This document shows positions 8,178-64,000 of a DNA stretch of 64,000 bases, in pieces. Under the pieces are notes generated by a model. It was not told the DNA's origin and ran no database searches. It saw nothing but the letters and a program-made list of their open reading frames with translations. A program made the position numbers and the translations under genes. This stretch comes from Ianthella basta. Lineage: Eukaryota; Porifera; Demospongiae; Verongiida; Ianthellidae. The stretch spans positions 698,012-762,011 of the forward strand of contig OZ025874.1 in assembly GCA_964019415.1 (NCBI GenBank). The letters are read 5' to 3'. Every line of letters begins with the position of its first letter. Position 1 is the first letter of the stretch.

Positions 8178-9114
8178 CATATGTTGAGGAGTTTCACAGC
8201 CGCACATCTGGTTACCAAGGTGATGGCATGGAAGGTGGCCACCTCTTCTCGCTTATCTTCTCGCAGGATAGGACAAGTGCCAAAAACTGATGTATACTGG
8301 TAGCTATTCTTGTCCGTCACCCCACAGTTTGAGATACCCTTCACAACTGCAAGATCTGGAAAACTTGTTCACTTCCTTGAGCTGGCCAGAGCTCTTGTGG
8401 TACCAGAGCCTTCTATTCCTAAACCAATAAAAGAGATACTGGCACAAATCTTTTTCCCAAATCCAGTGTCTTTGATTGCTAATTGACCAGTTTGTATCTT
8501 GTGGACCTCTTTAACTGGAATGTTTTGAAACAAGCCAGTAGACGAAAGTGGTTGAGTAAATTTCATTTCACTGAGGTAGGAAGTCCAAGCAGGGCTGAGC
8601 TGATACATTTGTGGGTCTAAGCCCATGCCCCTAGCTTTGCCCTATCCCAGGTAGTCTTCCAAGTTGCTGGACAAGAGCACTGCACCACGAAGACTATCAC
8701 CATAGACTGGGTTCTCCATATTTACCTCACAGCAGCCAACTGCAAAAATCACCTCAAGGCTCCAGTTTCGCTCAGTAGCTTCGTCCAACAGCCGGAATGT
8801 TGTGCCAGTAGCTCCACCCATGGTTGCACCCATATGTGGGCACTTCATGTGAACACCGGCCACCACATTGCTTGCATTCTTTTTATCCACAAGCTTAAAC
8901 ACTTCATAGTCGCTTGTTTTACGGACAAACTCAACTCTTACCACTTCACCAAGTAGTGCATCGTTGTCCCAAGTGCACTTCTGTGCTTTATCCCACACAG
9001 CACCCGCACCCAACTTGAGAAAATGGCGAACCACATTCTGTTCTCTTGGACTGGTTGTGAGGATGGCAAAGCGCACTGGAGCTCCTTCAGGAGGTGGAGG
9101 ACTACGCTTGTGAG
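8178..9114 (-). pseudogene. Degenerate last exon with a PNP/UDP nucleoside phosphorylase-like domain
   Basis: A strong acceptor (pyrimidine-rich tract ending CCCTCAG) opens the exon in phase 1. The frame begins with a basic, Pro-rich stretch, then VRFAILTT, the first strand of the phosphorylase fold. It aligns end to end with the intact exon at 24,170-25,128: EQNVVRHFLKLG matches EDQAVRTFLKLG, VIFAVGCC matches VIFLVGCC, and VVKGISN matches LAKGISD. Two in-frame stops break it: TAG near 8645, after EDYLG, and TGA near 8372. Homologous residues continue past both to a final TGA at 8178. The VEME ribose-contact motif is altered to GIEG and a central stretch is missing. I read it as a decaying paralogue. 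Assembly error would have to explain two substitutions to stops, which seems unlikely. Confidence 0.7.
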
Positions 9115-9948
9115 CTGAGGGATTAGGAAGCAGAGAATGCCATGTAGTTCTACAGGATGACACAGACAGTAGAGAAGTACAGATCAGTCATTACGTCTAA
9201 CCACTAACTGCAGTTTGCTGTAGTCGTTTGTGGGGTAAAACATGGCAATTCAGATTGACATTCGTGTACAAATACATACGGCTGGATAGAATAATCATCC
9301 ATGATGGTGTAACAAAGAGTAATGCGCCAACAAGGAGTAGACTGGCAAGTGTGGGATGGATAGTTAGAGCGTAGATAGAGCTGTGAGAGCTATTTCAGTG
9401 CAGCACGGCTGATTTCAGATAAGTAGTCAGACTCATGATCTCAGCCACAAAGCATCAGTTGTTCTGGACACTTTGCCTGTCTGTAGAGCGGTACCTTGTA
9501 ACAATGTATACTTTGTTAGATCGGGACAGGCCCTTTCTACATAGATACACAACCGTGAGTCCCACATTACATACGGCGGTTTTACAGCATGACAACCAGT
9601 GACGTCTGTTTATACGCAAAGAAAACTTGCATGCTTAATAGACGTCATATAACCAAGCTAAGCTCACCAAATGTATACTGAAGTGAAGGAACGAACAAAA
9701 ACAATTGACAGAAACCTTTAACGTGTATATAGACGGGGGTCTACATGTACGAACGCATAAGATAACCAGCAACCTGATGACAAGCATGGGATCACGTAAC
9801 TTTCAGGTATTATGCATTAGACACAAACGGCAGTCTTAAACCTCTCTAGTGACTTGACAGGGTTGGATCGCAAAGCTATTCCCAATGTCAGTACAGACTT
9901 GGGACTTGAAAGTAACCTGTGTGAACACAGCACCCTAACTGTGACACC

Positions 9949-14207: not shown

Positions 14208-14374
14208 AACTGTTGACAGAACATAGAAGTGAACTGGTTAGCAAGTAATTTACCTACGTAGTATGGACAGTAGCAACACATTTAGACAAAGGTCATCTTT
14301 AGCTGTTAGCAAAGTGAGATGTACTACAGAACCTCATAACAAACACATGAGCTTGTGGGCACACACAAACCAAA

Positions 14375-17290
14375 ATGCATGCTTTAATGAACAGCATTTG
14401 CACAAGTTTCATGTACAATGTGGTCACAAGTACTGTAGGTATGTCATTCAATAGCGCTGTACCTCAAGACTGTGTTGGCCATCATGGAAAAACTATTGTT
14501 ATTGCACCCTCAAAGTTATGTGCAAACCACATTGAAGAAGTGAAGATGCTATTGGAGAATGCCAAAAGACCTGTCATACTTGGGCTGAGCGAAACATGGC
14601 TGAATTGTACTGTCTCAGACCACGAGATCAGCATCCCTACCTACCATGTGTACAGAAAAGATCGTGACAGGAGAGGAGGGGGTGTAGTTGTCTATGTTCC
14701 AAACAGATGCCGAAGCAGAAGAAGACTTGATCTTGAAGAGGATGGATTAGAGATGATCTGGCTTGAATTGCACATGAACAGAAGATCAGTTCTCTTGGGT
14801 AACATCTACAGACCACCTCATGCTGATGTGAACGCCTCAAATAATCTAGGCTGCAATCTTGAAAGGGCTACAGCCAAAAAGAAAGAAGTTGTGCTTATGG
14901 GGGACCTGAACTGTAACATGCTGGCACCGTCACACCAGCTAAATGAATTGTTGTCAGTTACTGAGAATTACAATCTTTTCCAGCTAATTACTGAACCCAT
15001 TCGAGTAACAGATCGCTCTAGTACACTTATTGACTTACTATTCACTACACATCCAGAGATGTTCACTACCACAGGTACACTTGCTCTAACCAGTAGCGAT
15101 CACCAAATGATCTTTGGAGAATGGTCAAAGAGGTTGACAGTATCTGAGAGTACAAGTGTGGTGAGATGCTACAAAAGATGCAACCCTGATGAGCTCATGA
15201 CTGACTTGCGGACAGCCCCCTGGCACGTGCTTGACATCTATGACCACATGGATGACAAGTGGAACTATTGGAAATCCCTCTTTCTTGACATTGTGAATAA
15301 GCATGCTCCTTTGGTTAAGGTTAGGAGGAAAAAGGGTAGAAATGATGATTGGATTGATGCGCAAATCAGGCAACTGATGAGATCCAGGAACTACTTTCGG
15401 AGGAAGCACTGGAGAAGCAATGCAAAAGAGGACTGGGACAAGTTTAACCACCTAAAGAGGGAAGTAAATCGTCGAATGCGAAAAGCGAAGGCTGAGCATT
15501 ATGCAGCAGTATGCAAAGGTATGCCATATCAGCCAAAAAAAGTCTGGAGACAGCTAAACTCTGCTCTTGGCAGAGGAAAATCAAAGCTCACCCCATCCCT
15601 GACACATGAAGGAACGACACTAACTAGGCCACGAGAAATTGTGGACTGTTTCCTAGAACACTTCAGCAATCTACCGTTTCCACCCGCTGCTGACATGCAA
15701 CAGTCACTACCCACAGTTCCCAGCACTTTCAGGCTATCCGAGATTGACGAAGAAATGGTACTTAAGCAATTGTCTACCCTGGATGAGAGGAAAGCTACTG
15801 GTCCAGACATGATATCTGCAAGGATCCTTAAAATGGTGGCCCCAGCTATAGTTCATGGCCTTACTAACCTATTTAATGCAAGTATAAGATTGGGGCAGTT
15901 TCCAACAGAGTGGAAAGAGGCGAATGTAACCCCAGTACCTAAGATGGGGACTAAACATGATGTTACTAACTATCGCCCAATTTCTGTGATCCCTGTATTA
16001 GCTAAGGTTTTTGAATCCCTCATACACCTTCAGTTATATGACTATCTAGAGGCACATAAATTGTTACATGAGGTACAAGCTGGTTTTCGACCAAACCATT
16101 CTACACAAGATGTCCTGCTGAGAACTGTCGATGACTGGAAGGCCTCAATAGATAAAGGTGACATTGTTGGGACCATTATGATTGACTTAAGCAAGGCATT
16201 TGATTCGATTGACCATGGCCTACTTCTAAAGAAGCTCAATGCATATGGTGTTAATGGAAGCGAGCTAGCCTGGTTTACTAATTATCTACAAGACCGGAAG
16301 TTCAGGGTAGTAATGAAGGGAGTGAGGTCCGAGTGGTCCAATGTAACGAGAGGAGTCCCACAGGGGTCCATTTTGGGACCACTCCTGTTTACCCTATTTG
16401 TCAATGACCTGCCCAATGCTGTGGAGAAATGTACAGTTAATCTCTTTGCTGATGATACATTCATCTACACCTCAGACAGCGATCCCAAACGTGTTAGCAA
16501 CATATTAGAAGAAGATCTTGGTCGAGTAGCAAAATGGATAGTGGCAAATGGACTTAAAATGAATGTTGCTAAGACCCAATTGATGGTGCTCAGTAAGAAG
16601 AGTGATAAGAGACAAGCCAATGATGTAGTAGTTCGGTCTGGAGAACAGGCACTAACCAAACAAGAAACAGTGAAATACTTAGGAGTCCAGATCGACAGAG
16701 ATTTGAACTGGCAGCAGCACATAGATAGTGTTCGACAGAAATGCCTGTCTAAGCTAGCTCTCATTAGAAGAGCAAGTCACTACCTACCTTGTTCCATAAG
16801 AAAGCTGCTCTACCAGTCGTTTGTACTCCCACATCTCGATTATTGCTCTGTTGTCTGGCATTCCTGTGGCACCACTCTCAGTGACAGGGTTGAGAGGATT
16901 CAGAACTATGCCATGCGGGTGATCCTTCAGAAACCACCCAGAACAAGAAGCCACCCACTCTGGCAAATGCTAGGGTGGACCACCTTACATCATCGAAGGC
17001 ACCTAGCTATGTTAAGTCAGGTACACCGCTGCTTGACCAACAGAGCACCGGCATTCTTGACTGCCAAGTTCAGTACCAACACGGCCCAAAATGCTAACTA
17101 TCCCTCAACACGCGGAAAGAACAACCTGCATATAAAGCGTCCTCAAACCAATGCCTATCGCTCGACATTTGAATACCAAGGGGCATATCACTTTAACACC
17201 TTGCCACAAGCTATCAAAGGTATTAAGGATAGAAAGTTGTTTCGAACAGCTCTATACAATCTGACCCAGACCTCCCCATCACCAAATTAA
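14375..17290 (+). CDS. LINE polyprotein: AP-like endonuclease plus reverse transcriptase
   Basis: One uninterrupted 971-codon frame. Endonuclease landmarks: SETWL (72-76), GGGVVVYVPNR (101-111), NIYRPPH (143-149), GDLN (176-179) and SDH (241-243). RT landmarks: RKATGPD (about 470), NYRPISVIPVLAKVFESLI, AGFRPNHSTQD (about 569), MIDLSKAFDS, GVPQGSILGPLLF (about 661) and LFADDTFIY (about 690), then YLGVQID. The FADD box carries the two metal-binding Asp. This is the layout of CR1/L2/Jockey-type elements. The conserved N-terminal Asn of the nuclease is not evident, and no ORF1 is visible, so the 5' end may be truncated. The first Met is only the frame limit; the real start may be a later codon. 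Confidence 0.9.
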   Translation: MHALMNSICTSFMYNVVTSTVGMSFNSAVPQDCVGHHGKTIVIAPSKLCANHIEEVKMLLENAKRPVILGLSETWLNCTVSDHEISIPTYHVYRKDRDRRGGGVVVYVPNRCRSRRRLDLEEDGLEMIWLELHMNRRSVLLGNIYRPPHADVNASNNLGCNLERATAKKKEVVLMGDLNCNMLAPSHQLNELLSVTENYNLFQLITEPIRVTDRSSTLIDLLFTTHPEMFTTTGTLALTSSDHQMIFGEWSKRLTVSESTSVVRCYKRCNPDELMTDLRTAPWHVLDIYDHMDDKWNYWKSLFLDIVNKHAPLVKVRRKKGRNDDWIDAQIRQLMRSRNYFRRKHWRSNAKEDWDKFNHLKREVNRRMRKAKAEHYAAVCKGMPYQPKKVWRQLNSALGRGKSKLTPSLTHEGTTLTRPREIVDCFLEHFSNLPFPPAADMQQSLPTVPSTFRLSEIDEEMVLKQLSTLDERKATGPDMISARILKMVAPAIVHGLTNLFNASIRLGQFPTEWKEANVTPVPKMGTKHDVTNYRPISVIPVLAKVFESLIHLQLYDYLEAHKLLHEVQAGFRPNHSTQDVLLRTVDDWKASIDKGDIVGTIMIDLSKAFDSIDHGLLLKKLNAYGVNGSELAWFTNYLQDRKFRVVMKGVRSEWSNVTRGVPQGSILGPLLFTLFVNDLPNAVEKCTVNLFADDTFIYTSDSDPKRVSNILEEDLGRVAKWIVANGLKMNVAKTQLMVLSKKSDKRQANDVVVRSGEQALTKQETVKYLGVQIDRDLNWQQHIDSVRQKCLSKLALIRRASHYLPCSIRKLLYQSFVLPHLDYCSVVWHSCGTTLSDRVERIQNYAMRVILQKPPRTRSHPLWQMLGWTTLHHRRHLAMLSQVHRCLTNRAPAFLTAKFSTNTAQNANYPSTRGKNNLHIKRPQTNAYRSTFEYQGAYHFNTLPQAIKGIKDRKLFRTALYNLTQTSPSPN

Positions 17291-24169: not shown

Positions 24170-25128
24170 TTACAGAAGCACCTTCCAATTCTGTACCACA
24201 CATCGCATGACTAGAGCAATGGACTGCAGTGTGGCATACACCTGGAGTTCATCATCGCTCACCTTTTCAGTCTTTTTCTCAAAAAAATGACATTCAGCTG
24301 GCTGTCCCTTGCCACCTGTGTAGTCAGAAATTCCCTTGGCAAGTGCAATTTCTGGTTTTGGAGAATCTGAGAATTTATGAAATGCATCCACAGCCTTAAT
24401 CACGCCCAGCACTTCCATCTCTACACCAGCAACATCAGCAGGCCCACGATACTTGTCTCCAAACAGCTGGTCCTTGACAACCAAAGGGCCAGACAAATAG
24501 TTAACTTTCTCCACATGAATCTTATTGCGCACATCCCTGCCATCTGCGGTGAACTTAGCTTTCTCTAAAGCACTCACCCATTTTTTGGCCACATCATAAT
24601 TGTGTGGCTTGCCCTTGATGCGTATTTCTCCTGCACTTGCACCGGATTCTACCTTTCCTGTATGTAGGTAGCTGTTCACCTGTTCAGCAAGAAGAATGGT
24701 ACCACGATAGTTCCTGTCCTCTTTCTTGTCTTTTTCGATGGATGCCCCGCAGCAGCCAACTAAGAAAATCACCTTAGGCTGCCAATCTTTTAGGAGGTCA
24801 AGAGTTTTGTCAAAAGCCCCCCATGGTCCCATGCAATCACAGTGGATGTGAACTCCTTTTAGCTTGTGTTGATGATCAACTTTAAGGGAAAAGACAGTGG
24901 AATCAAGATTGTGAATCTCTTGCTCTTTATCAATGGTCATTCTGTTCTTCAGACATGGATCCCCATCATATTTACACTCGGCGGCATGTGTAAACGTTTC
25001 AGTGAGCAGCCACTGTGCACTGTTACCAAGCTTAAGGAAGGTTCTCACCGCCTGGTCTTCCCTTTCATTTGCAGTGAGGATGGCAAAGTTCACTACCTTG
25101 TCTTTGTCTTTGCTCCCACCTGTACCAG
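24170..25128 (-). CDS. Last exon with an intact PNP/UDP nucleoside phosphorylase-like domain
   Basis: Acceptor TTGCTGCAG; the exon enters in phase 1 and ends in its own stop. After a short linker (GTGGSKDKDK) come VVNFAILTANEREDQAVRTF, VIFLVGCCGAS, YRGTILLAEQV, DVAGVEMEVLGVIKAVDAF and EIALAKGISDY. In this family VEME contacts ribose, and the Asp of GISDY sits at the base-binding/catalytic site. Both are present, so the domain is probably active. The open frame has a GTG, not ATG, near its start, because the true start is in an upstream exon. Animal and fungal relatives of this domain in immune proteins cleave ATP or nucleosides. That role is inferred, not shown. A decayed paralogue lies at 8178-9114 in the same orientation. 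Confidence 0.8.
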
Positions 25129-25129
25129 C

Positions 25130-25515
25130 TGCAGCAAGTTAGCAATTGAGGAATACATAATATTGAGTCCATTAGCTTAATTTAAACTACTGTGCTAGTT
25201 TTAGGTCAACTATAAAGCTACAAAATAGGTACCGAGACACATTTCATAGAACAACGAAACAAGTGCTTCTACAGATTCTGAAAGAACAGAAACATTCTAT
25301 GTAACAATGCTGTAACATTAAAGTCCAATCACTATACCCACATCTTCCATACCCCATAGTACAGTGAGTTGCACAACAAAATGGCAACCATTAGCCATTA
25401 GAATTGTTGTGTGTGAATGAAAGACTATATGAAGGTTCAACTGTGTGGGTGGGGCAGGTGTGGGTGACATTCATACAAACACACTCCTCTACAGAAAACA
25501 GTGAAGAGGATGTTA
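25130..25515. other. Intron of the PNP-like gene; no other feature seen
   Basis: Low-coding DNA just upstream of the last exon. Confidence 0.35.
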
Positions 25516-58440: not shown

Positions 58441-58861
58441 CCAGAGTGAAGAGACCCAAAGTTGAGGCAGTAATCAGTGTGCGTCTTCTTCCAAAACACG
58501 GATGTGAGAGGCCTATAGATGGTGTCCTTCCTCTCCACTAGTACATCCAAGAAGGCAATCTTGTTGTCGGCTTCCTCCTTGACTGTGAACTGTATGGAGG
58601 GGTCACACTTCACCATGTTAGAGTGTAGGGGTCCAGGCTTCATACCACTTGGAGGCAAATTTTCGCTTCCTTACTTGCATTTCTTTCAAGTTGTGACTTC
58701 TATTACTACTCCATAGATATAAATGACTCTCTAATAATCATAGTACGAATAGAAGAGGAGAATGTAGTGGGTTGTTAAGTAGCTGAAGTGAGCTGCCTGT
58801 CCATTATGGTTAGTGGCACTTGGCTACTTCTCTGCCCACATTAAGTAGCCTCTTATGCATG

Positions 58862-59081
58862 TGTGATGAACTGGTGTCATTTGTTTACTTGACTTTGTGT
58901 GTGTAGCTATGTGTAAGCCTGTTAACCTGAACTGTGTACTAGTGAACCTTAGTGGTGTAGCAGCTGTGTAACAGTCCTATATAAGTCCTTGCAGCTGTTG
59001 TATTGTTGGTTGCTGCTTATTATTGAAGTTGAGTCACGTTGCTAGTGTGAACGGCGTTTCTCGTCCGGACGAGTCCTCACA
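58862..59081 (+). repeat. 5' LTR
   Basis: 220 bp, begins TGTGATGAACTGG and ends GAGTCCTCACA (TG...CA). It differs from the 3' LTR (62,743-62,962) at two positions I can see, both near 59,016. TATATAA at 58,978-58,984 is a likely promoter TATA box. Preceded by GCATG, repeated after the 3' LTR as a 5-bp target duplication. Confidence 0.95.
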
Positions 59082-59082
59082 T

Positions 59083-59098
59083 TTGGTGTCAGAAGTGA
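59083..59098 (+). promoter_or_regulatory. Primer-binding site, tRNA-Leu type
   Basis: TTGGTGTCAGAAGTG begins one or two bases after the 5' LTR. TGGTGTCAGAAGTG is complementary to the 3' end of a tRNA-Leu (…CACTTCTGACACCA in animals, from memory). Confidence 0.65.
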
Positions 59099-59105
59099 GC
59101 AGAGG

Positions 59106-60566
59106 GTGACAGCGGCTCGCCCAACCCACCAGAGACTACTTTGGATGACTACACGGTCCGGACGGCCATTTCACGAGATGTCAGACGAAAGGGAAGCAAG
59201 GGATGGTGACGCGGTCGCCAATTTGGTGAAGGTCTTGCTGGAGGACCGTCAGCGGCGAGAGGAGGAGGCGGCTCGACGGGAGCAACAGTTGCAGCAGCAC
59301 ATTGCTGCCAAATGCCCAGCCAAAGCAGCTCTGTTCAATGGTAAGCAGAAAGACCAGGTAGGTGCTGCTGCTCTGGGTGAAATACCATCTGAACCACCTA
59401 TCACTGCAAAAGGAACGATAGCTGGCACGCCAGTCAACGACATCCTCCTGGACACGGGAGCAGCAAAATCTATGTTGCACACTAGGGTAGTGCCAAATGA
59501 GAGTTTGACTGGGGAGAAGATAGTCATCAGGTGTGCACATGGCGATGCAAGGGAGTATCCACTGGCACGGGTGACGGTCGAGGTAGCAGGCAAGTCGCAT
59601 ACCCTGTTGGGAGCTGTTTCTGATACCCTCCCCGTGTCCGTGTTACTAGGCAGGGATATGCCAAACCTCAAGGACTTGATAGCAGTTGGTGATGGCGAGA
59701 CAGAGATTGAGGTTCTGGCCACCACGCGGGCACAGGCCCGGAAGCAGCAGGAGACCGAGAAGGAGAGAGTGGCTGAAAACTCTGATGCAACACTCAGCCC
59801 AGTGGAGCCCCTGGTAACTGTTGTAGAGGAGGAAGAGGAGGCCACAGTTGGGGCAGAGTTTGATGAATCCCTATTTCAAGGAGGGCGACAGAAACGTCAT
59901 ATGACTAGGCAGGAGAGACGCAGGCACAATCAGCAGTACGTGCAAGAGCAATTGGGAGGCCTGGAGAATCAAACTGGAGTACCGTTGGGGCCCCTAGATT
60001 TGTCAGCCAGTGAGCTTCGGAGTATGCAACAAGCAGATGAGTCACTGCAGGCAGTGCGCCAGGTTGCCAGGGGACAACCTAGCACAGTAGCAGGTCAGGG
60101 GTTCTTTGAACGAGATGGCCTGCTATATCGTAGGTGGATCCCGTCGCAGAGCATGGGAGGTGGCTCAGAGATTGAGCAACTCGTCTTACCTACACCGTGT
60201 AGAAAGGCTGTACTTCAGCTGGCTCACGAGATTCCGCTCGCAGGGCACCTCGGTAGGAAGAAGACCAGCCAACGGATTCTGCAAAGATTCTACTGGCCAT
60301 CCTTGTTCAAGGATGTGACAGCTTTCTGCAGGACCTGTGAAAGGTGCCAGAAGATGGGACATCAGAGGAGGATACCTGTGCCACTTGTACCCTTACCAGT
60401 CATTGATGAGCCCTTTCAACGGGTGGCGATGGACATTGTCAGGCCCTTACCAAAGAGCAGAATGAGCAATCGGTATACATTCTGGTGCTGTGTGACTATG
60501 CGACCAGGTATCCAGAGGCAGTACCTCTCTGTTGTATTGATGCAGAACACGTGGCAGAAGAATTAA
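59106..60566 (+). CDS. Reduced Gag, aspartic protease and integrase N-terminus
   Basis: 486 codons. Residues 30-70 are a charged coiled-coil (RQRREEEAARREQQLQQ) as at Gag N-termini, but there is no capsid and no CCHC knuckle; the text jumps to the protease by about residue 95. Protease: DTG at 116-118 in ILLDTGAAKSML, second motif near VLLGRD. Integrase zinc finger HEIPLAGH...CRTCERC at about 374-412, then VAMDIVRPLPKS with the first catalytic Asp. After that the frame goes wrong: the last 35 residues are unrelated and the correct text continues in another frame from 60,485. ATG choice follows the frame; the first few residues may not be used. Confidence 0.8.
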   Translation: MTAARPTHQRLLWMTTRSGRPFHEMSDEREARDGDAVANLVKVLLEDRQRREEEAARREQQLQQHIAAKCPAKAALFNGKQKDQVGAAALGEIPSEPPITAKGTIAGTPVNDILLDTGAAKSMLHTRVVPNESLTGEKIVIRCAHGDAREYPLARVTVEVAGKSHTLLGAVSDTLPVSVLLGRDMPNLKDLIAVGDGETEIEVLATTRAQARKQQETEKERVAENSDATLSPVEPLVTVVEEEEEATVGAEFDESLFQGGRQKRHMTRQERRRHNQQYVQEQLGGLENQTGVPLGPLDLSASELRSMQQADESLQAVRQVARGQPSTVAGQGFFERDGLLYRRWIPSQSMGGGSEIEQLVLPTPCRKAVLQLAHEIPLAGHLGRKKTSQRILQRFYWPSLFKDVTAFCRTCERCQKMGHQRRIPVPLVPLPVIDEPFQRVAMDIVRPLPKSRMSNRYTFWCCVTMRPGIQRQYLSVVLMQNTWQKN

Positions 60567-61540
60567 TGAGAGTGTTCTCTAGGGTAGGCATCCCAAAGGA
60601 GATCTTAACTGATCAAGGCAGCAACTTCATGTCACAATTGCTGCGCAAAGTTTATCGCCTACTGCATGTCCAACCTATACGCACCAGCCCTTACCACCCG
60701 CAAACAGATGGCTTGGTTGAGAGATTGAACCAAACTTTGAAGACAATGCTCCGCAAGGCAGCAGCAGAGGAGGGCAAAGATTGGGACAAACTCCTCCCGT
60801 ATCTACTCTTCGCTTATCGAGAAGTACCACAGGCATCCACTGGGTTCTCACCGTTTGAATTGTTGTATGGCAGAGTGGTCAGAGGGCCCCTGGACATACT
60901 GAAGGAGTCATGGGAAGCAAGTGCCAGGAGTAGCGAAAGCATTGTTTCTTATGTCTTGACAATACAGGAAAGATTGGCCAAGATGACTGAGCGGGCCCAA
61001 ACCAACCTCCATCATGCACAAGCACAGCAGAAAAGCTGGTATGATCGGAATGCGCGGGACCGTGAATTCCAGCTGGGAGAACATGTTCTTGTCTTACTGC
61101 CGACATCAACAAGCAAGTTCTTGGCCCAGTGGCAGGGTCCTTACCCAGTGGTAAGGAAAGTCAGCTCAGTAACCTACGAAGTTGATATGTTTGACCACAA
61201 GAAATGGAAAAGTATCTTTCATGTCAATATGCTCCGTAAGTGGAATGCCCCACAGGCTTCCAATTATTTGGTTGAGGAGGATGACAGTGTTTTGGAAGAG
61301 GTGGAGATCATACATTGGCAAGATGACAGTCGGGAAGTGAATCCAATGTTTGGTCCGCAACTGGAAAAGAGCCAGCAGCATGACATCGAAGAGATTTTGC
61401 ATGTATTCTCAGACCTGTTTCAGGACAAGCCTGGTAGAACAGCTCTCGTTGAGCATCATGTGGACACAGGGAATGCAGCCCCAGTTCGGCAGAGGCATTA
61501 CCGCCTGCCACGCAGGACTTATTCAACCCTCCGTGAGTGA
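60485..61540 (+). CDS. Integrase core and C-terminal GPY/F module
   Basis: Continues the integrase: LCDYATRYPEAVPL, ILTDQGSNFMS (second catalytic Asp) and GLVERLNQTLK (catalytic Glu). It then runs through a basic linker to LAQWQGPYPVVRKV and FHVNMLRKWN, the GPY/F module typical of Ty3/gypsy integrases. No chromodomain. The 81-bp overlap with the previous frame marks a single frameshift. The end (VRQRHYRLPRR then unrelated residues and a stop) shows a second break, where a short stretch before the RT is lost. Confidence 0.85.
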   Translation: MLCDYATRYPEAVPLCCIDAEHVAEELMRVFSRVGIPKEILTDQGSNFMSQLLRKVYRLLHVQPIRTSPYHPQTDGLVERLNQTLKTMLRKAAAEEGKDWDKLLPYLLFAYREVPQASTGFSPFELLYGRVVRGPLDILKESWEASARSSESIVSYVLTIQERLAKMTERAQTNLHHAQAQQKSWYDRNARDREFQLGEHVLVLLPTSTSKFLAQWQGPYPVVRKVSSVTYEVDMFDHKKWKSIFHVNMLRKWNAPQASNYLVEEDDSVLEEVEIIHWQDDSREVNPMFGPQLEKSQQHDIEEILHVFSDLFQDKPGRTALVEHHVDTGNAAPVRQRHYRLPRRTYSTLRE

Positions 61541-62747
61541 GTGGGCTTCCCTTGTTGTAGCTGTTCAGAAGAAGGATGGGTTGCTGAGATTATGTGTGGA
61601 TTACCGTAAGCTAAATGCTGTGTCGCAGGCTGATGCATACCCAATGCCACGGGTCGATGAGCTACTCGATAACTTGGGCCAGGCGAAGTACATCTCCACC
61701 TTAGATTTGACAAAAGGTTATTGGCAAGTTCCAGTGGCAGAGAAGGATCGTGGCAAGACCGCCTTCACAGCTGGTGCAGGTCTGTTCCAATTCAATGTGA
61801 TGCCTTTTGGACTGAGGGGAGCGCCTGCCACCTTCCAGCGGCTAATGGACGTGGTCTTGACAGGGATGGGTGAATACAGTGCTGCCTACATGGATGATGT
61901 AGTAATCTTCAGTATGACCTGGGAAGATCATCTGCAGCACATCCGACAGGTGCTCCAGAAGTTACAGGATGCTGGGTTGACCATCAAGGGCAGGAAGTGC
62001 CAGTTTGGGATGCAGCAATGTACTTACTTGGGCCATGTAGTGGGGATGGGCTGTCTGAGGCCCGAGGCTGGCAAAGTGGAGGCTGTAAAACAATTTCCGA
62101 TACCGAGCACCAAGTCAGATGTCTGGACCTTTCTGGGATTGGCTGGGTATTATAGGAAATTCATCCCTAACTTTGCATCAGTGGCTGCCCCTCTTACAGA
62201 TTTGACCAGAAAGTCTGCGCCAAACCAAGTGCAGTGGAGTGATGAATGTGAAACAGCTTTTTGTCGTCTGAAGGCAGCCATGTGCTCTTCTCCAGTTCTG
62301 GAGGCCCCAGATTTCCAGAAGCCCTTTATTCTCCAAACCGATGCATCTGAGCAAGGAGTTGGGGCAGTGCTAAGTCAAAAGAATGCATTGGGGCAGGAGC
62401 ACCCAGTGTCGTATTTTAGCCGCAAGTTGTTACCCAGAGAGGCAAAGTATTCCATGGTAGAAAAAGAGTGCCTCGCCATTAAACTGGCTGTCCAGGCCTT
62501 CAGAGTGTATCTTCTGGGACGGCCCTTTGTGATCCAGACAGACCATCGGTCATTGATGTGGCTGGACAAGCTTAAGGACACCAACGACAGACTTGCCAGG
62601 TGGAGCTTGGCTCTACAGCCCTTTCAGTTCTCCATTGTCCACTGCCCTGGAGCCAGCAACGGAAATGCTGATGCTTTATCGCGGGCAGGAGACAGAGTTG
62701 CAGCAAAGACAGCAACGTCTGCCCCAGAGAAGGGGAAAGGAGTGTGA
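61350..62747 (+). CDS. Reverse transcriptase and RNase H
   Basis: The meaningful text starts around 61,505 (LIQPSVSEWAS). RT: LCVDYRKLNAV, STLDLTKGYWQVPV (motif A Asp), MPFGLRGAPATFQRLM and AAYMDDVVIFS (YMDD). Connection FLGLAGYYRKFIPNF. RNase H: LQTDASEQGVGAVLSQ, VEKECLAIKLAV, QTDHRSLMWL and GNADALSRA, with all four acidic positions present. The stop overlaps the first bases of the 3' LTR, so nothing is encoded after RNase H. Integrase is therefore upstream, not missing. Confidence 0.9.
   Translation: MVRNWKRASSMTSKRFCMYSQTCFRTSLVEQLSLSIMWTQGMQPQFGRGITACHAGLIQPSVSEWASLVVAVQKKDGLLRLCVDYRKLNAVSQADAYPMPRVDELLDNLGQAKYISTLDLTKGYWQVPVAEKDRGKTAFTAGAGLFQFNVMPFGLRGAPATFQRLMDVVLTGMGEYSAAYMDDVVIFSMTWEDHLQHIRQVLQKLQDAGLTIKGRKCQFGMQQCTYLGHVVGMGCLRPEAGKVEAVKQFPIPSTKSDVWTFLGLAGYYRKFIPNFASVAAPLTDLTRKSAPNQVQWSDECETAFCRLKAAMCSSPVLEAPDFQKPFILQTDASEQGVGAVLSQKNALGQEHPVSYFSRKLLPREAKYSMVEKECLAIKLAVQAFRVYLLGRPFVIQTDHRSLMWLDKLKDTNDRLARWSLALQPFQFSIVHCPGASNGNADALSRAGDRVAAKTATSAPEKGKGV
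62725..62742 (+). promoter_or_regulatory. Polypurine tract
   Basis: CAGAGAAGGGGAAAGGAG directly abuts the 3' LTR, the expected plus-strand primer. Confidence 0.85.
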
Positions 62748-62962
62748 TGAACTGGTGTCATTTGTTTACTTGACTTTGTGTGTGTAGCTATGTGTAAGCC
62801 TGTTAACCTGAACTGTGTACTAGTGAACCTTAGTGGTGTAGCAGCTGTGTAACAGTCCTATATAAGTCCTTGCAGCTGTTGTATTGTTGGTTGCTTCCTA
62901 TTATTGAAGTTGAGTCACGTTGCTAGTGTGAACGGCGTTTCTCGTCCGGACGAGTCCTCACA
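62743..62962 (+). repeat. 3' LTR
   Basis: 220 bp, TGTGATGAACTGG to GAGTCCTCACA. Differs from the 5' LTR at two adjacent-region bases (TTGCTTCCTA against TTGCTGCTTA). Followed by the GCATG target duplication at 62,963-62,967. Confidence 0.95.
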
Positions 62963-62967
62963 GCATG

Positions 62968-64000
62968 CATCACTTTTTTCTTTCCCACTGCACCTCCAAT
63001 GTCCATAACGTTGTCCTTCTCCGCTCTCTTTCACCTACACACAGGTGTCAGGTGAACCAGCTGTACAAAGCATGCACAATACTAATCCAGAAGAACCAGC
63101 CACATGTATTGGTGCAACGAAACTAAAAATGAGAACAGTGCCTGCTGTCCTAGCTACATAGAGATGGAACAATAGATGCAGCTTCAGACCGGTTGCACTG
63201 TATGTACTGTCTCAGCCAGAAGCTGGGAAGGTGCGTAGCACTAGGAGTTAAGGCTATCTTCAAACTATACAAGTCAGGGGCGGATCCAGGGGGGGCTTTG
63301 GGGGCTTAAGCCCCCATCCTTGCCCCAGATCTGAATATTTTTGAGGCGCTTTCACTTTTAGGTATTCGTATGGCTTCATGTTCGTATATATGTATGTATT
63401 AGTTATAACACCTCCTTTTCGGTATGTCACTGATTTATAAGCACTCCCCCCTCGGGCGCTTGTGTTATAAGTGATATATTTGCCGAACAAAGGGAAGCGT
63501 GGGCAAATATTAATTGGTTTCTAGCCAAATAAGGAAAGCATTAGGGGAGCGCGGGCGAATCCAATGCATTTTTATTCATTACGAAAGCTAGCTAGCGAGG
63601 AGCCAAGCGAGTCAGGCAGAAACGTCAGTACGCTGCACCTTCGGAAACCTCTTCCTCTACGGAGGAGACGTCTTGCCGCACTCCTGCAATGTGATTGAAG
63701 GCACCAACAAGACTTGGCTGGTGAATCGTGGTCGGCAGAAGGTGTGCCCGACGGCATTGCAGGCGGAGGGAGCCAAGCTGGCTCAGAGGAATCTGACGGT
63801 GGGACAGCACGATGGATCGGTGATCAGCTGCGTCGGAACTGACCGTGATCTGAGACGCTATGTTCATTCGGTAGCTAGCTAGCTAGCTACGTACTTAAGA
63901 TGTCTTTCCGACAGGGTCCTCTCGTGCGGAAGAACCCGCCACCATTGACGCACAAATTTCGTCGAATCGACAGCTGTAGTACGGTAGAACGGCAGTAATC
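62968..64000. other. Right flank; repeat fragments only
   Basis: A GGATCCAGGGGGGGCTTTGG/CTTAAGCCCCC palindromic patch at 63,278-63,316 and the CACTTTTAGGTATTCGTATG block at 63,350-63,385 are dispersed repeats. About 63,560-63,880 has more CG and longer frames on both strands (for example minus 63,572-63,867), possibly an exon of a gene beyond the window. No domain was recognised. Confidence 0.3.

What the first reader, a model, noticed from the sequence alone, without database searches (positions are those of the whole stretch)
59106..62747. Gypsy-type enzymes in copia-type order (protease, integrase, RT, RNase H)
Seen directly: protease DTG, integrase zinc finger, D/D/E core and GPY/F module all lie upstream of a gypsy-like RT (YMDD) and RNase H, whose stop overlaps the 3' LTR. 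Established: this order with gypsy enzymes defines the Gmr1 group, first described mainly from deuterostomes. If the host is a sponge or other early animal, the order swap is older or more mobile than that sampling suggested.
Basis: partly seen in the sequence, partly recalled or inferred. Interest (0 to 1): 0.8.

Follow-up and report, generated by a model that had tools for sequence, protein, structure and literature searches.

The report
Sponge jumping gene with shuffled enzymes
This is a broken copy of a retrovirus-like jumping gene in a sponge genome whose inserting enzyme comes before its copying enzyme; its close relatives share that order, so it belongs to a known group (Gmr1), seen here in a very early animal branch.

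Summary
Confirmed. Window 58862-62962 is an LTR retrotransposon (220-bp LTRs, 218/220 identical; 5-bp target duplication) with Ty3/Gypsy-type enzymes in the order protease, integrase, RT, RNase H. This copy is defective: two frame breaks, and an in-frame 801-nt gag deletion.

The order is no local accident. Four further 4.9-kb copies share it. Of 39 RT-like stretches in the genome, 26 have integrase upstream, 11 downstream, 2 none found. RT and integrase trees both split upstream from downstream elements at 100/100 without Ty3; with the long-branched Ty3 the RT tree is less clean. Gag of another copy carries a SCAN domain and zinc knuckles; SCAN is known to derive from Gmr1 gag. Of 41 SCAN stretches in this genome, 31 lie upstream of this type of integrase, none next to a conventional one, 10 are unpaired.

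The mitochondrial contig (atp9, 25 tRNA calls, TGA=Trp) marks the host as a sponge, probably a demosponge. So this is a Gmr1-type element in a sponge, with relatives in Ephydatia muelleri, a sea urchin and a fish. The kind is known, and papers had already taken it beyond deuterostomes (crustaceans, annelids). A useful range extension, not a new kind.

The parts
58857..58861 (.). target-site duplication, left copy (GCATG)
   Evidence: same five bases at 62963-62967
58862..59081 (+). 5' LTR, 220 bp, TGTGATG...CTCACA
   Evidence: direct repeat; 2 mismatches of 220 against the 3' LTR
59084..59097 (+). probable primer-binding site TGGTGTCAGAAGTG (tRNA-Leu-like; the tRNA assignment is recalled)
   Evidence: the internal region of L039-L042 begins the same way, TTTGGTGTCAGA
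59145..59408 (+). remnant of gag: N-terminal part joined in frame to the end of the second zinc knuckle; deletion joint at 59297-59302, 801 nt missing relative to L039
   Evidence: no Pfam match up to E 1 in 59046-59450
59409..59660 (+). aspartic protease, DTG at 59451-59459
   Evidence: PF13975 E 6.7e-05, PF00077 E 0.0044, both under their cut-offs
60189..60359 (+). integrase H2C2 zinc-binding domain
   Evidence: PF17921 E 8.5e-20
60429..60766 (+). integrase catalytic core, split by a frame break after the first Asp
   Evidence: PF00665 E 1.2e-09; PF13683 E 8.8e-06, under its cut-off; frames 59046-60566 and 60410-61540
61136..61237 (+). integrase C-terminal (GPY/F-type) module
   Evidence: PF22938 E 7.5e-09, PF24626 E 3.7e-07
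61563..62039 (+). reverse transcriptase, YMDD at 61887-61898, in a third frame
   Evidence: PF00078 E 8e-35; best solved relative is Ty3
62310..62624 (+). RNase H
   Evidence: PF17917 E 1e-38
62726..62742 (+). polypurine tract directly before the 3' LTR
   Evidence: a similar purine run precedes the 3' LTR in L039, L040, L041 and L042
62743..62962 (+). 3' LTR; contains the stop codon of the RT-RNase H frame (62745-62747)
62963..62967 (.). target-site duplication, right copy (GCATG)

Best explanation
The stretch is a defective insertion of a Gmr1-type Ty3/Gypsy retrotransposon in a sponge genome, probably fairly recent, since its LTRs are 99% identical (an inference). Better preserved relatives in the same genome carry gag and pol in one long frame, in the order capsid (SCAN-type), zinc knuckles, protease, integrase, RT, RNase H between short LTRs. 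Inferred from what is known of such families, not shown here: a tRNA primes cDNA synthesis next to the 5' LTR in a Gag particle, the protease frees integrase and RT, and integrase inserts the cDNA with a 5-bp staggered cut. Integrase before RT is the inherited order of the whole lineage and needs no special event in this copy. This copy lost most of gag by an in-frame 801-nt deletion between short matching words, plausibly during reverse transcription, and its pol is broken in two places, so it could move only with proteins supplied by better preserved relatives, if at all.
For: Domain order and E-values. LTRs, TSD and PPT. Four other copies, 4.91-4.94 kb long, at other sites have the same order. 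26 of 39 RT-like stretches have integrase upstream, 11 downstream, 2 none found (using). All 120 listed database relatives (of 4542) of an IN-RT-RNase H piece have integrase upstream; all 120 listed relatives (of 7953) of a conventional element from the same genome have it downstream. RT and IN trees of 43 rows both separate 26 upstream from 17 downstream rows at 100/100. Ty3 is the best solved relative of the window RT and of the integrase of a related copy. Gag of L039 has SCAN (E 9.5e-21) and two CCHC knuckles. 31 of 41 SCAN stretches are followed within 4 kb by an integrase of this type, 0 by a conventional one. Long single frames hold both SCAN and integrase at several places, for instance 1510, 1518 and 1540 aa. 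Sponge mtDNA.
Against: No sequence labelled Gmr1 was at hand, so membership rests on order, gag type and unlabelled relatives. With Ty3 included, the RT tree draws the long Ty3 branch next to one upstream row (91/92) and needs two changes of order; the IN tree separates the groups at 93/83. In the first trees (four downstream rows) the split had 32/91 in RT and was not one branch in IN. The protease match lies below the Pfam cut-offs. 10 of 41 SCAN stretches had no integrase match within 4 kb, and the gag piece of copy L042 gave no SCAN match, although the genome search found one there. Most relatives come from unnamed contigs, and each database query carried both domains in its own order, which could favour hits of like order.
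Confidence: 0.93

Rival explanations
1. A conventional Gypsy element whose integrase was moved upstream in this one copy by a local rearrangement.
For: The copy is visibly damaged: two frame breaks and a gag deletion.
Against: Other copies at other sites, two of them with a clear target duplication of their own, have the same order; L039 keeps gag, protease, integrase and RT in a single 1415-aa frame.
Confidence: 0.01
2. A mosaic of two Gypsy lineages: integrase from one, RT from another.
For: The nearest row to the window family outside itself differs between the RT tree (P0001) and the IN tree (L027).
Against: Both domains place it among upstream-order elements at 100/100. The differences lie inside that group, where many branches are weak.
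Confidence: 0.03
3. A Ty1/copia element, to which this order is native.
For: The gene order alone.
Against: The window RT and the integrase of a related copy match Ty3 best among solved structures; RT_RNaseH and Integrase_p58_C/SH3 modules as in Gypsy elements (that these are Gypsy marks is recalled); SCAN-type gag in a sister copy.
Confidence: 0.01
4. The lineage is of Gmr1 type, but it reached sponges by horizontal transfer from bilaterian animals rather than by descent from the animal ancestor.
For: RT identity to a fish element (67% over 155 aa) is about as high as to elements of another sponge, Ephydatia muelleri (54-67%).
Against: Several distinct families occur in this genome, further relatives occur in E. 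muelleri, and in the RT tree the fish and urchin rows lie among branches that also hold rows of this sponge (drawn from the midpoint, so direction is not shown). The named bilaterian hits are only 51-55% identical to the query; most listed hits have no species name.
Confidence: 0.2

Closest known systems
Gmr1 clade of Ty3/Gypsy (Goodwin and Poulter 2002; authors and original paper recalled, not read)
   Same: Gypsy-type enzymes with integrase upstream of RT, as stated in passages of PMC3587641, PMC6238403 and PMC8220671; gag related to SCAN, as stated in passages of PMC4592553 and PMC3424704.
   Different: Host is a sponge; this copy lacks most of gag and has two frame breaks.
Unlabelled pol proteins of Ephydatia muelleri (P0042, P0056, P0103, P0104, P0107, P0117)
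   Same: Integrase before RT in all six; P0056 and P0107 carry SCAN in the database's Pfam list. That the eukprot ids beginning Em are E. muelleri is recalled for four of the six; two bear the species name.
   Different: 54-67% RT identity to the window copy; a different sponge.
Lytechinus pictus LOC135154209 (P0105) and Oryzias melastigma LOC112151925 (P0101)
   Same: Integrase upstream of RT; the fish protein carries SCAN.
   Different: 60% and 67% RT identity; bilaterian hosts; P0101 as annotated begins inside RT and appears to span two neighbouring copies.
Ty3 (yeast, PDB 7q5b)
   Same: Closest solved relative of the window RT and of the integrase of a related copy.
   Different: RT (residues 634-1018) before integrase (1087-1445), the conventional order.
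Ty1/copia elements
   Same: Order protease, integrase, RT, RNase H (recalled).
   Different: Enzymes here are Ty3-like.

Membership tests
Gmr1 clade (Ty3/Gypsy) | Integrase domain upstream of RT | tested here: met
   Window; 26 of 39 RT-like stretches in the genome, against 11 with integrase downstream and 2 with none found; 120 of 120 listed relatives, of 4542.
Gmr1 clade (Ty3/Gypsy) | RT and integrase of Gypsy type | tested here: met
   Pfam; Ty3 is the best PDB match for the window RT and for the integrase of a related copy. The window's own integrase was not run against the PDB.
Gmr1 clade (Ty3/Gypsy) | RT and integrase trees agree on one group | tested here: met
   26 against 17 rows, 100/100 in both trees without Ty3. 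With Ty3: IN 93/83, RT two changes.
Gmr1 clade (Ty3/Gypsy) | Gag capsid related to SCAN | tested here: met
   Met in L039 (E 9.5e-21) and at 41 places genome-wide, 31 of them paired with this integrase type; deleted in the window copy itself.
Gmr1 clade (Ty3/Gypsy) | Grouping with the named elements Gmr1, Cigr-1, GyRex4, LGF3 | not testable with these tools
LTR retrotransposon | Paired LTRs with TG...CA ends, target duplication, PBS and PPT | tested here: met
   the tRNA match of the PBS is recalled, not tested.
Ty1/copia | Copia-type RT and integrase | tested here: not met
Sponge host (demosponge type) | mtDNA with atp9, trnR(ucu) and a full tRNA set, TGA read as Trp | tested here: met
   C96, 21,233 bp against passages of PMC2444032.

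The most novel reading that the evidence does not exclude
The integrase-first order together with the SCAN-type capsid was already in place before sponges and bilaterians split, and several Gmr1 lineages have been inherited in sponges since; the capsid stock from which vertebrates later drew the SCAN domain would then be as old as animals.
Probability: 0.45. Interest if true: 0.6.

Novelty: new member of a known kind. Interest (0 to 1): 0.42.

Why it matters
It puts Gmr1 elements, with their order swap and SCAN-type capsid, firmly in a sponge, in several families and many copies. That makes it testable whether the swap arose once near the base of animals, and it supplies distant outgroups for the origin of the SCAN domain, whose gene family a passage of PMC3424704 calls vertebrate specific. 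In the held library I saw no report of Gmr1 in sponges (searches; most hits seen as listings only, and some listings capped; all 12 papers with a Gmr1 phrase were listed). Two listed papers hold both 'Gmr1' and 'sponge' as Gypsy papers (PMC8556966, PMC6238403); of these I saw the Gmr1 passages only, and they do not speak of sponges. Repbase and most subscription journals are outside these searches. It extends a known distribution rather than surprising in kind.

Tried and rejected
Local rearrangement, copia membership and an RT/IN mosaic were tested and rejected (see rivals). A ribozyme in the LTR was considered because the LTR end holds a 14-bp palindrome (CTCGTCCGGACGAG); Rfam gave no match up to E 5 over 58700-63100. 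The best RVT_1 matches in the genome (L001-L008) gave no match to the window's RT, RNase H or integrase, so that list was no use for an order census. Host identification through a window gene (24170-25138) gave 65 relatives, none with a species name; the mitochondrial contig settled it instead. The first trees (33 rows) had too few conventional rows and were superseded. A protein search of the genome with the window RT did not complete, so the order census rests on DNA matches of RT and protein matches of integrase. The original Gmr1 paper was not read; the paper on the birth of the SCAN domain was asked for by a DOI recalled from memory and is not held.
Full report
Anatomy. The element runs from 58862 to 62962 on the + strand. 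Its two LTRs (58862-59081 and 62743-62962) are 220 bp long, differ at 2 of 220 positions and are flanked by GCATG on both sides. A TGGTGTCAGAAGTG primer-binding site lies two bases after the 5' LTR (its tRNA-Leu assignment is recalled), and a purine tract abuts the 3' LTR. Pfam finds, in this order, a protease (weak, DTG present), the integrase zinc finger, integrase core and C-terminal module, RT, and RNase H. These lie in three frames: 59046-60566, 60410-61540 and 61341-62747. The first break lies inside the integrase core, between the first Asp and the second; the second lies between integrase and RT.

What is missing. Compared with another copy (L039), the window copy lacks 801 nt (267 codons) of gag, in frame. 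Both parental sites carry GCACAT and the window holds it once, at 59297-59302. The deleted part includes the SCAN-type capsid and the first zinc knuckle of L039. So this copy is doubly defective: no capsid, broken pol.

Other copies. DNA searches of the 209-Mb assembly found 39 stretches like the RT, 7 like the protease-integrase part and 34 like the LTR with its flank. Eight of the 39 RT matches are of the same family (91-100% identity, the window included). Four further copies (L039-L042) measure 4.91-4.94 kb. Target duplications of 5 bp are readable in L039 (GCAAG) and L040 (CAGCT); L042 lies in a TG repeat, where the match means little, and in L041 the alignment does not reach the 3' LTR end. 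In all four the order is protease, integrase, RT, RNase H. L039 holds one open frame of 1415 aa from gag into RNase H, where it breaks; the other three have more breaks.

Order across the genome. With all 140 integrase matches laid beside the 39 RT matches, 23 RT stretches have an integrase of the high-identity group upstream, 10 have one of the low-identity group downstream (one of these also has a neighbour's integrase 2.5 kb upstream, in a repeated region of C20) and 6 have none (with 61 of the 140, agrees). For 4 of the 6 the fetched DNA shows an integrase: upstream in L017, L024 and L026, downstream in L044. That makes 26 upstream, 11 downstream, 2 none found. The two are C9:3171789 and C89:14146, shortened copies of the window family. 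RT stretches far from the window's RT are not in this census. The 140 integrase matches fall into 60 at 48% identity or more and 80 at 42% or less (counted); several of the 60 are pieces of one copy. Eleven of the 60 lie in open frames of at least 1400 aa.

Relatives elsewhere. A single-frame integrase-RT-RNase H piece of a related copy (L023, 749 aa) found 4542 proteins at E <= 1e-20, of which 120 were listed. All 120 have integrase upstream. Named ones come from Ephydatia muelleri, Lytechinus pictus and Oryzias melastigma; 14 of the 120 carry SCAN in the database's own Pfam list. A conventional element of the same genome (L047) found 7953 proteins, 120 listed; all 120 have integrase downstream and none lists SCAN, though many may lack gag. 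Each query carried both domains in its own order, which could favour hits of like order.

Trees. I took RT and integrase from 43 rows: 8 upstream rows of this genome (the window included), 18 of 20 chosen upstream proteins (P0104 and P0107 fell below the length limits; 20 of the 120 were chosen), 3 conventional loci and 14 chosen of the 120 conventional proteins. Near-copies L020, L021, L023, L025 and L048 were left out, and L046 had no long enough RT. In both trees one branch with 100/100 support separates the orders. With Ty3 added, the integrase tree still separates them (93/83), but the RT tree puts the very long Ty3 branch beside one upstream row. I read that as a long-branch effect; it is a result against a clean split. 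The trees are unrooted, so they do not say which order came first.

Gag. The gag of L039 matches SCAN (E 9.5e-21), two CCHC knuckles and Retrotrans_gag. Passages of PMC4592553 and PMC3424704 state that SCAN derives from Gmr1-like gag. The genome holds 41 SCAN stretches: 31 are followed within 4 kb by an integrase of the high-identity group, none by one of the other group, and 10 are unpaired. No SCAN lies within 6 kb of any of the 80 low-identity integrase matches. This is a line of evidence for Gmr1 that does not rest on gene order.

Host. Contig C96 (21,233 bp) is mitochondrial: COX1 with nine in-frame TGA, 25 tRNA calls including trnR(tct), and atp9 (PF00137 E 5.9e-14). Passages of PMC2444032 give atp9, trnI(cau) and trnR(ucu) as extra genes of demosponge mtDNA, and rns-trnG-trnV-rnl as its commonest rRNA arrangement; trnG and trnV lie close together here too, the rRNA genes were not mapped. 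So the host is a sponge, most likely a demosponge.

Literature (seen as passages unless stated). PMC3587641 describes Gmr1-like elements as Gypsy elements with integrase upstream of RT and reports the first ones in protostomes. PMC8220671 places an annelid family in Gmr1. PMC8556966 lists Gmr1 among clades present in several phyla. PMC4131045 counts about 200 copies in a frog. The searches named under why it matters showed no sponge report; apart from the passages named in this report I saw their results as listings and the starts of abstracts.

Judgement. Observation confirmed, Gmr1 reading supported. New member of a known kind; the interest lies in the host and in the SCAN-type gag. Whether the group is as old as animals or came to sponges sideways is open.

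Noticed in passing
window 14351-17290 (+): A 979-aa open frame of a LINE-type retroelement (endonuclease and RT domains).
   Followed up: no
window 24170-25138 (-): A 322-aa frame without a Pfam match; none of its 65 relatives bears a species name, four of them are listed with a longest contig of 758,556 bp, and one carries PF01048, a nucleoside-phosphorylase domain (the domain's name is recalled). It may be an expanded, divergent phosphorylase-like family of this sponge group. The frame at 8642-9187 (-) looks similar by eye.
   Followed up: partly
G000:C20:3283910-3541940: Eight conventional Gypsy RT matches of equal or nearly equal score on one strand within 0.26 Mb, all at the same distance from their integrase: an array or a repeated insertion hotspot.
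   Followed up: no
G000:C2:5426484-5463468: Five damaged relatives of the integrase-first group within 37 kb on one strand.
   Followed up: no
G000:C9:3171562-3173186 and G000:C89:12921-18611: Two further shortened copies of the window family near which no integrase match was found.
   Followed up: no
L060:5700-5852 (-), mitochondrial contig C96: trnN and a tca-anticodon tRNA are predicted on the opposite strand, while a passage of PMC10695373 says no inversions were found in heteroscleromorph mtDNA; a hint to the sponge subclass, or a false call.
   Followed up: no
P0129 (hit): A Gypsy pol protein is filed under a gammaproteobacterial MAG, probably host DNA in a symbiont bin.
   Followed up: no
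window 59060-59073 and 62941-62954: A perfect 14-bp palindrome, CTCGTCCGGACGAG, near the end of each LTR; no Rfam match.
   Followed up: partly
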